From contig JWZX01002058.1 in assembly GCA_001275005.1 (NCBI GenBank), positions 1-27,896 on the forward strand: a stretch of DNA of 27,896 nt. The letters run 5' to 3'. Under the pieces are notes generated by a model that saw nothing but the letters and a program-made list of their open reading frames with translations, ran no database searches and was not told where the DNA came from. The DNA comes from Chrysochromulina tobinii. Taxonomy: Eukaryota; Haptophyta; Prymnesiales; Chrysochromulinaceae. The position numbers and the translations under genes were made by a program. Positions 22,255 to 27,896 of the stretch are shown in pieces (within the stretch, counting starts at the first letter, position 1; each line of letters begins with the position of its first letter).

Positions 22255-22279
22255 GCTCTGTTCACATCGACATTCACAC
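22255..22279 (+). promoter_or_regulatory. Upstream element, copy 1
   Basis: A 25-bp block (core TTCACATCGACATTCACAC) located 40 bp before the start of the first Cys-rich/Pro-rich membrane protein. It recurs with one mismatch at 24784-24808 before the chimeric gene. It is part of a promoter or 5' untranslated region kept in, or copied with, both genes. Confidence 0.5.
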
Positions 22280-22318: not shown

Positions 22319-23358
22319 ATGGAGGTAAAGGGACACTTCGCCTTCATTTGGGTCGTCATGACGTTGGGCGTCACGCACGCACCGATACGGGCTCCACCTC
22401 CACCGCCGCCAGTACCACCTCTCATCAGCTGCAGTTCGCCCCTGGGCGAAGCAGCTTGCGAAGGTATCAGTACCACGACAAGTTTTGGCTCCTGCCGCTT
22501 CCTATCCGAGAACTATCCTTGTGCGATCATCCGTTTGCTCCTCTCTGGAGCGACAACGTGCGACTGCTGCTGCTTCAACACGCTCCCGCCTCCACCAAAC
22601 CCACGCCTGCCACCGGGACCACCCCTTTCCCCTCCGCGACCCCCATACCAGCCGATAGCGGGTGGTGCCTACCTCTGCTCTGACACCTGCGGCTTTTGGT
22701 CAAGCAACGGTGAGTGCAACGACGGAGGTCCGGGATCTGAAGGGTACTCGCCGTGCCCGCTCGGAACCGATTGCACCGACTGCGGACCGCGCCTCGTCTA
22801 TCCGCCGCCCCCACCTCATCCACCTCCCAGTCTGCCACCGCCGTCACCACCTGGTGCTGTGTGCCTAGACACATGCAATTACTACTTGAATTACTACGGC
22901 GATTCTTGTATCCGCGACCATTCATGCGGTGCTGGCATCTGTGAAGACGGAGGCCCAGGCTCCGAGTACACCTACCACTACTACCAATGTCCTCTTGGCA
23001 CCGACTGCATCGACTGTGGTCCCCGGTACATTTCTCCGCCTCCACCGCCTCCACCGCCTCCACCGCCTCCGACTCCTCCTCCGAGACCGCCGCCGCAGTT
23101 TCCTGGAGGAGGATTGTTCGTGTGCGTGAACACATGCCCAACCTCCTATGGTACCGCTCGCGCGAGCAACGGAATATGTGAAGACACCGGCTTCGGCTCT
23201 GTGGCCCTCCAGTGTCCAAACAATCCCGTTTCCTTATGCGGCTGTGCACTCGGCACAGATTGCGCCGACTGCGGCCCGAGGGTCGTGCACTTGCCGCCGC
23301 CGACCCCGCTGCCGCCGCCACCATACTGGTTATGGCCGCCGCCGCCGCCAAGGCCGCT

Positions 23359-23390
<32 letters not shown>

Positions 23391-24577
23391 CGCCCCCGCC
23401 TCCAAGTACGCCTCCTGGGATGCTTTGCTCGAATTACTGCTATTACACTCAAGATGGCTACATGTACTCTCAGGACTACTATGCGAGCAACGGAGAATGC
23501 GAAGATGGAGGTCCGGGATCCGTATCGTATGAACACTGCAACTTGGGCACCGACTGCTTCGACTGCGGACCTCGGACCATGCCGCCGCCGCCACCATCGC
23601 CACCACCTGGAGCTGTGTGCCTGAACACATGCAATTCATACTTGAATTCACACGGCTATTCTTGTATCTACAGCCATTCATGCGGTGCTGGCATCTGTGA
23701 CGACGGAGGGCCAGGCTCCGGGTACAACATCTACAACTACCAATGTCCTCTTGGCACCGATTGCATCGACTGTGGTCCCAGGTACATATCGCCGCCTCCA
23801 CCGCCTGCACCGCCACCATCGCCGCCACCATCGCCGCCACCATCGCCGCCGATGCTGTGCAGCAACACGTGCCCCGGATATGCCCACACCGGTGCGTGCC
23901 AAGATGGTGGCGCCGGCGCCATAAGCGATCGCTGCGCGTACGGTACCGATTGCGCGGACTGTGGCCCAAGGCATATGTTTCCTCCGTCGCTCCCAGGGTC
24001 TCCAAGCCCGCCTCCAGGGCTGCAGTCGCCACCACCGCCACCTGCACCGTCTCCTGACCCAGAGCCGCCACCGCCACCGCCGCCATCGCCATCCCCGCCC
24101 GAGCCATCGCCGCAACCCCCGTCGCCGCCCGCCCGCCCGTCTCAACATTCTGTGGTCGATCAGTCCCATTCGTCTGCCGTCCCCGTGCTGCCACCAGCCC
24201 ATGCGGGCCTTGTCACACCAGTCCAGCAGAGCAGCGACGTGTTGTTCGTGATGATCACGCTCGGGGCGGTTGCTCTCTTGCTCCTCCTCTCGGCCATCGT
24301 GGTCCTCCTCTTCCTCTTGCTCAAGAGGGTGCGTCAGCCGTACTCGATGTTAGAGCGTGGTAGCGGAGGACAAGAGCTGACGACGATGAAGCCGCCTTCG
24401 TCGTTGGCAGGCTCCGAGGAATCCTCGTCCAAGCCGACAGGCGAGCCTCTTGCAGCCCAGCTTGTCGGATTGGCAGCGCAGACGAGGCAACTTGGCAATC
24501 ATGGCAGCTTGCCTCTGGCGATTGGCATCCCGAGCCTCGCGGCAGCGCGGAAATGGGAAAGCTTGCCTGAGAGCTGA
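22319..24577 (+). CDS. Pherophorin/extensin-like membrane protein with six Cys-rich modules
   Basis: A 752-residue single-exon protein starting at the ATG at 22319 (the frame extends upstream only to a GTG). A signal peptide (KGHFAFIWVVMTLGVTHA) is followed by six modules of the form CxxxC ... GxCxDGGxGS ... CxxGTDCxDCGPR, joined by polyproline/Ser-Pro spacers as in extensins and pherophorins. Modules 2 and 5 are nearly identical. Module 3 has a variant core (CEDTGFGS) and extra cysteines. A Pro-rich stalk leads to one transmembrane helix (about 641-668, FVMITLGAVALLLLLSAIVV) and a basic/Ser-rich tail of about 80 residues. The probable role is as a glycosylated cell-surface or scale-associated protein. 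The 3' part is duplicated in the chimeric gene at 27161-27896. Long minus-strand frames here only reflect the repeats. Confidence 0.82.
23392..24451 (+). repeat. Segmental duplication, copy A
   Basis: The 3' part of the first membrane-protein gene is closely similar to 27161-27896. Nearly identical blocks include the module ending DCFDCGPRTMP, the CPGYAHTGACQDGG module and the transmembrane segment with tail. Copy A is about 320 bp longer because it keeps one more Cys-rich module (near 23600-23790) and a longer Pro-rich stalk (near 24050-24150). Confidence 0.9.
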
Positions 24578-24912
24578 GTGCCAGCGGGGTGTGAGTCGTG
24601 CTCGTGTCGAGGTTCGGGTCGGGTGTTCCTCGTTCTCGGGATAGAGCTCCACGTCGGTCTTATTGTGTGACGATTGTGGTATGTCGTGATTAAATCATAC
24701 AAATTTCGTTTGATGGTTGAAAGTGTGGGCGTCGTCGGTCATTTGTGAGTGTGATGGCATTTTCGTTGAGATTTGCGGGCCACGCTCTATTCACATCGAC
24801 ATTCACACCAGCAAGTTTCGGCTCGAACAACTTGACGACTTGCCGCGATTTGCTCAGAAGGGACATGTGCATGTGTACGCACTCCTCCAGGTCCTCCATT
24901 GCGGCTGCAACG
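24578..24912 (+). other. Intergenic interval and 5' region of the chimeric gene
   Basis: These 335 bp separate the first membrane-protein gene from the chosen start of the chimeric gene. The first half is relatively AT-rich (near 24680-24720), suiting a 3' end or promoter. The 25-bp shared element lies at 24784-24808. An in-frame ATG at 24754 would extend the chimeric protein by 53 residues, but that puts the shared element inside coding sequence, unlike its paralogue. Confidence 0.5.
24784..24808 (+). promoter_or_regulatory. Upstream element, copy 2
   Basis: This is the counterpart of 22255-22279, with 24 of 25 bases identical (one G to A). It lies 104 bp before the chosen start of the chimeric gene. 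The sequences around it diverge, so this short block stands out. Confidence 0.5.
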
Positions 24913-27896
24913 ATGCTGCATCTCATGCAAGCTGCCGCACTTGCGCAGCCAGCGGCTTCGCCATCACAGCTCCTGGTGCTTGGCATGCACCACTCGGGCA
25001 CGTCGATCGTGTCCAACCTGACGATGATGATGGGTGCCTATGGTGGCGAGATGGACGAGCTGCTCCTGCACCCCGAGAACCCGCTCAAGTATTGGGAGCG
25101 CCGCGATGTGGTCGCGCTCGATGAGCAGCGGCTGACGGCTGGCGTGAGCGCGCGTGTGTCCGAGCGGTACGACGTTCCCGAGTGGATCGCGTACGGCTTC
25201 GATGCTGGCAAGGCCGCGACCAAGGTGCACGAGATGCCCGAGGCCAAGGCGGTCGTCGCCAAGCTCAACACGCAGCGGCCTTGGGTGACCAAGGACCCTC
25301 GCATGTGCCTCGTTGCCGACGAGTGGATGGAGCTGCTCGACGCGCCGCTGTGCGTGATCGTGCACCGCGAGCCGCTCTCGGTGGCCAACTCGATGATGAT
25401 CTATTCGCACAATGTCTCGCTCGCCGAGTGGGCTTCGGTTTACGAGGCCTACTACACTAACGCCATGCGCGCGTGCCACGGGGTGTGTGCTTCTCCCTTC
25501 CTATCGCTTGTTGAGCCCCCTCCTCCTCTCAGCCTGGTCCCGCATGTCGCCGCCACCGCCGCCCGCGCGTACCGTCGTTCGAAGGCGGGCCGCCCTCGGC
25601 GCTTCCAACTCTCCTCACGCCGCCCGCCCTTGCGCCGCCCTCTTCTTTGCAGAAACCCACCGTTGTTGTGCAGCACGCCGAGCTGGTTGCCAACCCATTG
25701 GCTGCCACAGTCAAGCTGTACAATGACCTCGTCGCCGCTGGCGTTGCGGGACTCACGCTGCCCACGGAGGCTCAGGTGGGCCGCCTGCTGCGCCCGTCGA
25801 CCGAGCATGCGCACACGTACCTCGCGTCGGAGCGTGCGGCCGTTGGCCCGTCCGTCCACGCGCTCTCGAGGGCGCTCTCGTCGGCCGACCGCTTGCCCGC
25901 GGCGCAGCTCCCGCGCGCCAGCTGGCACGTGGCCGAGCGCAAGGCGAACGAGGCGATCGCCACGCTGCTCACCACGGACAACAGGGACTACCTGCGCGGC
26001 GCCCTCGTCCTTGGCTCCTCCATCCGCTCCTTCGACTCTTCACGCGACATGGTGCGCGGCGTCGCCGCGCGCCCCCCGAAAAAGACCATCCCCTAGAGAA
26101 CTGCCTCCGCGCAGCGCCGCCCCCCTGCCCGTCGTGTGCCCAGCGCCGGCTCACACGATCCCACCCCGTGCATCGCCCAGGTGGCGCTCGTCACCGCTGC
26201 CGTCCCGAGGGAATGGCGCGACCCGCTCTCCGTCGCCGGCTGGACAGTGGTCGAGGTGCCCGAGCTGGCCGAGTTCTGGTGGGGCAAGTCGGAGGAGTGC
26301 TCGCGTTTCGCTGCCGACCAGGGCGAGCGCTGGGGGCACATGGCGACCAAGCTGCGCCTGTGGCAGCTCACGCAGTACCAGCGCGTCCTCTACCTCGACG
26401 CGGACACAATCCTCACCGGCCCGGTCGACACGGTCTTCTCGTCGATCAGCACCTTCGCTGCCGAGGCTCCCAAGTACCACTCGCACTTCAACGCGGGTGT
26501 GCTGCTCCTCACCCCCTCGGAGGCGACCTTCAACGAGCTGCTTGAGCTCGGCCGCGTGCAGCACGCGACTGTCTTCGGCAACCTGATCGACTGCACCGAG
26601 CAGGGACTGCTCAACTCGTACTACAACGGCGCGCCTGGCCGCGAGGTGGCCAAGCTGCCGATCGGCCGCGCGGATGTGCAGGCAGACTGGGCGGGCGCGA
26701 CCGCGCCGTGGGCAGTGCACTGGATCACGCTCGTGTGCCCCAAGCCGTGGCGCATCGCCGACCAGGCCGAGGAGCTCGAGGCGCACTGCGACGCGTCCGT
26801 GTACGCCTATTGGCAGCGCGTGTGGAACCGCCTGACCGCTTCCTCGGAGGACTCGTCCTCCGGCGTGTCGCGTGGCGCGCGCGAGTCGGCTCGCCGCAAG
26901 ATGCGTCGCCTCACGGGCGTGTCGGCGGGCCCGTCGGTCGTGGGCCGGCCGCAGAGGGAAACGGCATCGGCGGGCGAGCTGCTGGTTGAGCTTTGGGACA
27001 ACGCAGCTGAGGTCATCGGCCGCCAGCTGCGCCAGGTCGTCACGGGGCGCGAGCTGCGCCGCCGCCGCCGCCGCTTGCGCGAGGAGTACGACGCGTCGCC
27101 TGTGATCACAATTCCGCCGCCACCGCCCATGCCACGACCGCCGCCGCCGCTGCCGCCCCCGCCCCCGCCTCCAAATACGCCTCCTGGGATACTTTGCTCG
27201 AATGGTTGCGAATACTATACTTACTATCACGGTAATTCAAATTTGCAATATGCGAGCAACGGAATATGCGAAGATGGAGGTCCGGGATCCGTATCTCATG
27301 AACACTGCAACTTGGGCACCGACTGCTTCGACTGCGGACCTCGGACCATGCCGCCGCTGCCGCCGCTGCCGCCGCCGCCGCCATGGATGCTGTGCAGCAA
27401 CACGTGCCCCGGATATGCCCACACCGGTGCGTGCCAAGATGGTGGCACCGGCGCCATGAGCGATCGCTGCGCGTACGGTACCGATTGCGCGGACTGTGGC
27501 CCAAGAAATATGTTACCTCCGTCGCTCCCAGGGTCTCCAAGCCCGCCTCCAGGGCTGCAGTCGCCACCACCGCCACCTGCACAGTCTCCAGTTTCTGTTG
27601 GCGATCCGTCCCATTCGTCTGCCGTCCCCGTGCTGCCACAATCCCATGCGGGCCTTGCCACACCAGTCCAGCAGAGCAATGATGTGTTGTTCGTGATGAT
27701 CACGCTCGGGGGGGGTGCTCTCTTGCTCCTCCTCTCGGCCATCGTGGTCCTCCTCTTCCTCTTGCTCAAGAGGGCGCGTCAGCCGTACTCGATGTTAGAG
27801 CGTGGTAGCGGAGGACAAGAGCTGACGACGATGAAGCCACCTTCGTCGGTGGCAGGCTCCGAGGAATCCTCGTCCAAGCCGACAGGCGAGCCTCTT
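24913..27896 (+). CDS. Chimeric sulfotransferase - GT8 glycosyltransferase - Cys/Pro-rich modules - TM protein (3' end outside window)
   Basis: Exons 24913-25482, 25653-26051 and 26181 to the right edge, all phase 0; at least 895 residues. Domain 1 (about 18-260) is a sulfotransferase: the PAPS 5'-phosphosulfate loop is GMHHSGTS (24-31) and a 3'-phosphate segment is VTKDPRMCLV with VIVHREPLSVANSM. Domain 2 (about 290-600) is a GT8, glycogenin-like glycosyltransferase: AIATLLTTDNRDYLRGALVL, KLRLWQLTQYQRVLYLDADT with the metal-binding Asp-396/Asp-398, FNAGVLLLTPS and TEQGLLNSYY. An Arg-rich linker then runs without a stop into polyproline, two Cys-rich modules (CEDGGPGS, GTDCFDCGPR) and a transmembrane helix (about 825-852). 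The N-terminus (MLHLMQAAALAQPAAS) is a weak signal peptide. An enzyme that sulfates and glycosylates surface or scale polysaccharide while anchored by its tail is inferred. No separate start or signal sequence precedes the modules. Confidence 0.75.
25483..25652 (+). other. Chimeric gene intron 1
   Basis: A 170-nt phase-0 intron (GTGTGT...TTTGCAG, with a pyrimidine-rich 3' half). Splicing joins NAMRACHG to KPTVVVQHAELVANPL, which continues the sulfotransferase domain. Unspliced, the frame becomes Pro/Arg/Ser-rich low-complexity sequence. Confidence 0.8.
26052..26180 (+). other. Chimeric gene intron 2
   Basis: A 129-nt phase-0 intron, GTGCGC...GCCCAG. Splicing joins SIRSFDSSRDM to VALVTAAVPREW, giving the normal first and second strands of a GT8 domain. 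Unspliced, the frame stops at 26096 (KTIP). This junction is what connects the sulfotransferase exon to the main GT8 exon. Confidence 0.82.
27161..27896 (+). repeat. Segmental duplication, copy B (runs off the window)
   Basis: Counterpart of 23392-24451, fused in frame behind the GT8 domain. It lacks the second, duplicated Cys-rich module and part of the Pro-rich stalk. Its first module is variable upstream of the ASNGICEDGG core, where it looks more like module 3 of the other gene. The window ends at the position matching 24451 in copy A. Confidence 0.9.

What the first reader, a model, noticed from the sequence alone, without database searches (positions are those of the whole stretch)
24913..27896. 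One gene fuses a sulfotransferase, a GT8 glycosyltransferase and a Cys/Pro-rich membrane-anchored surface module
After two clear phase-0 GT-AG introns a single frame reads through the PAPS loop, the GT8 DxD motif, polyproline, two GTDCxDCGPR modules and a transmembrane helix. I know of no described enzyme with this architecture. It would couple two polysaccharide-modifying activities to a cell-wall-type anchor on one chain. The type I topology (C-terminal anchor) is also unlike usual Golgi type II enzymes.
Basis: partly seen in the sequence, partly recalled or inferred. Interest (0 to 1): 0.87.

Follow-up and report, generated by a model that had tools for sequence, protein, structure and literature searches.

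The report
Chimeric algal sugar-modifying enzyme, anchor swapped
A marine haptophyte alga appears to carry a young, intact chimeric gene in which a two-headed enzyme (sulfotransferase plus glycosyltransferase), itself a widespread but apparently unstudied haptophyte family, has lost its usual membrane anchor and gained the cysteine/proline-rich modules and anchor of a neighbouring type of gene.

Summary
In detail: a three-exon gene (24913-25482, 25653-26051, 26181 to the contig end) encodes a sulfotransferase-like domain, a glycogenin-like GT8 domain, polyproline, two GTDCxDCGPR modules, a transmembrane helix and a tail. The interpretation needs correcting. Sulfotransferase+GT8 with a C-terminal anchor is not new here: 51 of 85 database relatives carry one recurring C-terminal anchor, including a Prymnesium parvum protein, and a sister type has LNR and kringle modules before its anchor. 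What is new is the tail. After residue 633 the usual anchor is replaced by the end of a module-protein gene of the type just upstream (22319-24577; last 313 bases 95% identical); the unfused protein P0200 matches best. A 36-bp 5'-flank block is also shared with that neighbour; its exact 18-mer core occurs at only these two places in the 53-Mb assembly. A near-identical canonical copy (346 of 351 residues), already spliced, is in the databases. So this looks like a DNA-level chimera: an enzyme body nested in a module-gene duplicate. P0001 and P0025 carry the same fusion with their own differences, which argues against an assembly error. No transcript crossing the junction was found. Activity, secretion and relocation are inferred.

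The parts
22261..22278 (+). 18-mer TTCACATCGACATTCACA in the 5' flank of the module gene (core of a ~36-bp shared block)
   Evidence: 2 exact places in the 53-Mb assembly, both in this window; 2 more with one mismatch elsewhere; 0 for the reversed control; block score 50 vs at most 27 in 1000 shuffles
22319..24577 (+). Upstream module gene: 752 aa, six GTDCxDCGPR-type modules, polyproline, C-terminal TM and tail; of the type that gave the tail
24790..24807 (+). Second copy of the 18-mer, in the 5' flank of the fused gene
24865..24912 (+). Possible N-terminal extension from in-frame ATGs at 24865 and 24871, at the 5' border of the enzyme-derived segment
24875..27110 (+). Enzyme-derived segment: homology to the second enzyme copy (C931) starts at 24875, similarity to the canonical family ends at 27110
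24913..25482 (+). Exon 1: leader and most of the sulfotransferase-like domain (P-loop 24982-25005; R152/S160 in 25363-25392)
25483..25652 (+). Intron 1, GT-AG, phase 0
   Evidence: spliced relatives
25653..26051 (+). Exon 2: end of the sulfotransferase region, start of GT8
26052..26180 (+). Intron 2, GT-AG, phase 0
   Evidence: P0091 spliced here
26181..27896 (+). Exon 3: GT8 core (DxD 26388-26408, HFNAGV 26484, TEQGLLN 26595, VHW..KPW 26715), then junction, modules, TM and tail; open at the contig end
   Evidence: fold shown on the relative P0002
27111..27185 (+). Junction and polyproline: canonical SPVMT|PEAWAW replaced by SPVIT|IPPPPPMPRPP
27186..27344 (+). Module 1 of the captured tail
27387..27506 (+). 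Module 2 of the captured tail
27584..27896 (+). Captured TM and cytoplasmic tail, 296 of 313 bases identical to 24139-24451; TM 27684-27770, YSML 27786-27797

Best explanation
This is a recently formed chimeric gene. The parent enzyme is a haptophyte sulfotransferase-GT8 protein: a short leader probably carries the chain into the secretory pathway, both catalytic domains are lumenal, and a conserved C-terminal helix with an acidic, lysine-ended tail holds it in an internal compartment. In this lineage a DNA copy of that gene, introns included (about 24875-27110), came to lie inside a tandem duplicate of a neighbouring module-protein gene. It replaced the N-terminal part and kept the 5' flank upstream and the last two modules, TM and tail downstream. 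Both catalytic motif sets are kept, so the likely effect is a change of expression and address: the same two-headed enzyme under the module gene's 5' control, presented on a proline/cysteine-rich stalk by another anchor whose tail holds a YxxPhi-like YSML. There it would extend and sulfate glycans at or near the cell surface or scales. SHOWN: fusion in frame, parent-like sequences, junctions, splice agreement, two further fused sequences. INFERRED: order of events, secretion, topology, location, activity, substrates.
Against: No transcript across the junction was found: of the 277 database proteins held only P0001 and P0025 match both sides of it, and both read as genomic (intron sequence included); 48 of the 168 hits were not listed and so not checked. 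Tail dN 0.043 and dS 0.040 over 98 codons, last module dN 0.028 and dS 0.021 over 64, give no sign of purifying selection. The leader is only weakly hydrophobic (15-residue means 0.1 to 1.0) and differs from C931 by 5 replacement and 0 silent changes in 43 codons, so secretion is not established. The 36-bp 5' block is short and similarity below it is not significant (257 of 2000 shuffles reach it). P0025's tail mixes features of the neighbour and of P0200, so gene conversion may blur who the donor was. The sulfotransferase fold match is barely above P-loop kinases (8.4 against 7.7), and no Foldseek match passes 0.001.
Confidence: 0.58

Rival explanations
1. The chimera is real at the DNA level but inert: a young duplicate, unexpressed or drifting, whose long open frame has simply not yet decayed. 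The canonical copy does the work.
For: No junction-crossing transcript found, while the canonical copy P0091 is spliced and its cluster has 58 members; dN about equal to dS in the tail; leader with 5 replacement and no silent changes against C931.
Against: Frame open in three differing sequences, to its end in P0001, with the catalytic motifs kept in the window; P0001 and window exon 3 differ at 3 of 572 residues.
Confidence: 0.23
2. The frame is open but two products are made: the enzyme part is cleaved or released near the polyarginine/polyproline region, so enzyme and module tail do not stay on one chain.
For: A basic run (RELRRRRRRLREEYD in the window) precedes the junction, in some form in all 14 rows, and could be a proprotein-convertase site (recalled).
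Against: The same basic run precedes the conserved anchor in the canonical family, so cleavage there would equally free those enzymes; not tested.
Confidence: 0.08
3. Assembly chimera: two near-identical tails made the assembler jump from the enzyme gene into a copy of the module-gene tail.
For: The repeat is 95% identical and lies within 3.5 kb; the contig ends inside it at 27896. A second enzyme copy also breaks off at a contig end (C931). The source of P0001 is not shown, so it may be another assembly of the same population.
Against: P0001 (46.6-kb contig, beyond the window's end) and P0025 (5998-base contig, one module fewer) carry the fusion with their own differences; the three fused sequences share derived residues beside the junction. 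The window tail is not the neighbour's tail letter for letter (17 of 313 bases differ).
Confidence: 0.06
4. Reverse polarity: the module tail belonged first to an enzyme gene and was copied from it into the module gene.
For: The fused tail and P0200 are closer to each other than to the neighbour's tail.
Against: 51 of 85 enzyme relatives have another anchor; other module proteins (P0090, P0201) end, on reading, with the same kind of last module, proline stretch and hydrophobic helix without an enzyme part.
Confidence: 0.04

Closest known systems
Haptophyte sulfotransferase-GT8-TM family (e.g. P. parvum AB1Y20_017136, P0013; 'hypothetical protein' in the databases)
   Same: Order sulfotransferase then GT8, C-terminal membrane anchor; intron positions agree with P0041 (genomic, introns read through) and with spliced relatives; enzyme part 443 of 615 residues identical to P0013, 346 of 351 to P0091
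   Different: Conserved anchor PEAWAWVAIIGTLALGLAAGALLHKLF and acidic, mostly lysine-ended tail are missing; module tail instead
Sulfotransferase-GT8-LNR-kringle proteins (P. parvum AB1Y20_001463, P0060; own-genome C1122)
   Same: Same two enzyme regions followed by Cys-rich extracellular-type modules and a C-terminal hydrophobic helix: a precedent for the general layout
   Different: LNR and kringle modules instead of GTDCxDCGPR; 43% identity for P0060; found in several sequences, not a recent chimera
GTDCxDCGPR module proteins (upstream gene 22319-24577; P0200)
   Same: Last modules, polyproline, TM, tail; the neighbour also shares the short 5'-flank block
   Different: No enzyme part in them
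Glycogenin (GT8)
   Same: Fold; DxD, FNxGV, QGLLN aligned; KPW recalled for glycogenin
   Different: Glu where glycogenin has Asp in DQGLLN; with a C-terminal anchor and a sulfotransferase-like domain
Tyrosylprotein sulfotransferase / PF13469 sulfotransferases
   Same: Among the best fold matches; PAPS-loop SGTS and R-x7-S
   Different: Weak similarity; His at the loop position that is Arg in 5 PF13469-type relatives outside the family
NDST1 (bifunctional deacetylase-sulfotransferase) and LARGE1 (two glycosyltransferases)
   Same: Two glycan-modifying activities on one membrane-bound chain (NDST1: title and start of abstract; the rest recalled)
   Different: Other domain pairs, and N-terminal type II anchors (recalled)

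Membership tests
Haptophyte sulfotransferase-GT8-TM family | Sulfotransferase region followed by GT8 in one spliced frame | tested here: met
Haptophyte sulfotransferase-GT8-TM family | Conserved C-terminal anchor and acidic, lysine-ended tail | tested here: not met
   Replaced after residue 633; 51 of 85 relatives have the anchor, of these 49 end in Lys and 51 have an acidic run. Hence a derived chimera of the family, not a plain member
Glycosyltransferase family 8 | Glycogenin-like fold with DxD | tested here: met
Glycosyltransferase family 8 | Catalytic activity and sugar donor | not testable with these tools
   Motifs only; Glu for Asp in DQGLLN
PF13469 sulfotransferases | Profile score above the curated cut-off | tested here: inconclusive
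   Window exon 1 24.1 bits (cut-off 27); P0002 29.3 and P0013 30.8 pass; P0001, P0048, P0055, P0060 and the C1122 frame match below it
PF13469 sulfotransferases | PAPS loop and 3'-phosphate motif (R...S, 8 apart; recalled) | tested here: met
   GMHHSGTS 24-31; R152 and S160
PF13469 sulfotransferases | Lys/Arg in the loop just before SGT (recalled) | tested here: not met
   His in the 45 family loops matched, window type included; Arg in P0081-P0085
GTDCxDCGPR module proteins | Repeated Cys modules, polyproline and the same TM/tail | tested here: met
Functional expressed fusion protein | Transcript or peptide across 27080-27200 | tested here: inconclusive
   None among the 277 proteins held; 48 hits not listed; the search covers assembled proteins only

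The most novel reading that the evidence does not exclude
A new kind of cell-surface enzyme born by address swapping: a bifunctional glycosyltransferase-sulfotransferase taken out of its internal compartment and displayed on a modular surface stalk, so that extension and sulfation of wall or scale glycans can be done in place by one chain.
Probability: 0.3. Interest if true: 0.72.

Novelty: new variant of a known kind. Interest (0 to 1): 0.52.

Why it matters
It shows a chimeric gene at an early stage with near-identical sequences of its parent parts still in view, and a natural test of what an anchor and tail do to a glycan enzyme. It also draws attention to a haptophyte family, not described in the papers searched, that puts a sulfotransferase-like and a GT8 domain on one chain: a candidate for the making of sulfated scale or surface polysaccharides, whose enzymes are largely unknown (recalled).

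Tried and rejected
Viral contigs hold no relative of exon 3 at this sensitivity. NCBIfam gave no match for 5 proteins. Exon 1 by sequence alone finds no solved sulfotransferase, and the profiles A2 and A3 find solved structures only for the GT8 part (other rows are weak and unrelated). The HypF-finger match of the modules (upstream gene 19.5 bits, cut-off 23; one other module frame 23.3) rests on the C..CGPR end and I do not use it. CLN5 matches are below cut-off and overlap GT8. I thought the shared 5' flank might run on into the 5' UTR; that is not significant. No second module gene of this type appears in the own assembly, but one search scored 60 of 254 candidates. Literature: listings (none found), 36, 57, 58, 62 and passages of PMC4659905 and PMC4448552 show no description of a sulfotransferase-GT8 protein; most subscription papers are not held. 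The organism is placed only through its relatives (Prymnesium parvum 72%); I did not test an rRNA gene.

Full report

RELATIVES. A search of 5.8 billion proteins (7994 candidates scored, a capped set) gave 85 relatives. A motif script finds the canonical anchor in 51 of 85, the module tail in 2 (P0001, P0025), none with both; the other 32 are, by their Pfam notes and a partial reading, fragments, the LNR-kringle type, proteins with other C-termini, or sulfotransferases without GT8. Canonical proteins of full length are about 700-730 aa. In 42 of the 51 the motif of a spliced intron 2 is found, in 40 that of intron 1; the rest are truncated, read as genomic (P0041) or escape the motif. One is from the P. 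parvum genome (P0013). In the 13 canonical rows...EYD is followed by a short variable stretch and then (A/T)WA(W/A)(V/I)AI(I/V)(G/A)TL(A/G)LGLxxGALLHK(L/I)FIK or the like, an acidic run and the tail; 51 of 51 have the acidic run and 49 of 51 end in Lys. A C-terminal anchor after the two enzyme domains is therefore the family's normal state. The sister type is in P. parvum (P0060: kringle x2, LNR x5, GT8, and a sub-cut-off sulfotransferase match) and in the own genome on C1122 (kringle x2, LNR x5, sub-cut-off sulfotransferase; its GT8 part is seen only through 40% identity to P0002). The general layout 'two enzymes, Cys-rich modules, TM' thus has a precedent.

WHAT IS NEW: THE TAIL. From residue 634 (27111) the canonical sequence stops and a polyproline-module-module-proline-TM-tail follows. 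Three pieces are 95%, 92% and 81% identical in DNA to the gene just upstream, 22319-24577, and P0001 runs on to a matching end. The unfused module protein P0200 is closer still: 201 of 212 residues against 190 of 211 in the last module plus tail of P0001. The donor was thus a P0200-like module gene, the neighbour or a sister of it. No second such gene is listed in the own assembly (60 of 254 candidates scored), which is in 2253 contigs.

THE 5' SIDE. A 36-bp block stands in the 5' flanks of both the module gene and the fused gene (local score 50; highest of 1000 shuffles 27). Its 18-mer core occurs exactly at two places in 53 Mb, these two; allowing one mismatch adds two more elsewhere; the reversed control gives none. 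A second enzyme copy, cut by the end of contig C931, matches the window over 162 of 169 bases, starting at 24875, with no further match to the window in the 8000 bases fetched. The enzyme-derived piece is therefore about 24875-27110, lying between DNA that resembles the module gene on both sides. Introns are kept, so it moved as DNA. The simplest account is a tandem duplicate of the module gene whose first part was replaced by a copy of the enzyme gene; whether by conversion, template switching or insertion cannot be told.

REAL OR ARTEFACT. P0001 (46.6-kb contig, source not shown) and P0025 (5998-base contig, ENA) show the same join with their own differences; P0025 has one module fewer and a small duplication at the junction. 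The three fused sequences share Leu and Ile just before the junction where P0091, P0041, P0002 and P0003 have Ser/His and Met. This argues for one event older than the split of these sequences. P0091, canonical, differs from the window in 5 of 351 residues, one of them its own start codon; which species it comes from is not known.

EXPRESSION AND SELECTION. I found no transcript across the junction: of the 277 proteins held, only P0001 and P0025 match both sides, and both still contain intron sequence. The tail shows dN 0.043 and dS 0.040 (98 codons), the last module 0.028 and 0.021 (64 codons), the leader 5 replacement and 0 silent changes against C931 (43 codons): too few to decide, but not a mark of constraint.

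MECHANISM. Inferred: a leader, weakly hydrophobic here, targets the chain to the secretory pathway; the two enzyme domains act in the lumen or outside; the tail sets the address. The canonical tail is acidic and lysine-ended, like but not strictly a COPI dilysine signal (recalled); the captured tail has YSML, a YxxPhi pattern (recalled) shared with the module gene. In the own genome, of 8 module-bearing frames scanned, three also carry extracellular-type domains (laminin-G/C-type lectin/MAM; FG-GAP/dockerin; EGF), one RCC1 repeats, one only a HypF-finger match, and three nothing above cut-off; this fits a surface role without proving it. Hence the proposal that the fusion moves the enzyme to the surface under the module gene's control.

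VERDICT. Confirmed in sequence; the claim of a wholly new enzyme architecture is cut down to a recent, in-frame anchor exchange in a widespread haptophyte family that the papers searched do not describe. Function is open.

Noticed in passing
G000 C1122 (L026:2496-6404, - strand): Own-genome member of the sister type in one uninterrupted 1303-aa frame: sulfotransferase-like and GT8-like regions, LNR x5, kringle x2, C-terminal hydrophobic helix, like P. parvum AB1Y20_001463.
   Followed up: partly
G000, dozens of contigs: GTDCxDCGPR modules are frequent in this genome (104 matches, the window's own included), in some frames beside lectin, MAM, laminin-G, EGF, FG-GAP or RCC1 domains; I saw no Pfam family of their own.
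   Followed up: partly
P0025, at the junction: A small local duplication (DATPVITTPPPWMLY then DATPVITTPP) right at the fusion point and an altered stretch about 25 residues before it, as if the junction were still unstable.
   Followed up: no
window 26730-26732: The window gene and P0001 have Leu in VHWITLVCPKPW where P0025, P0091, P0041, P0002 and P0003 have His; the LNR-kringle proteins P0060 and P0061 also have Leu.
   Followed up: partly
P0048, P0055: Other relatives carry another C-terminus or a Cys/Ser/Pro-rich insert between the two enzyme domains, so the family may be prone to domain swaps.
   Followed up: no
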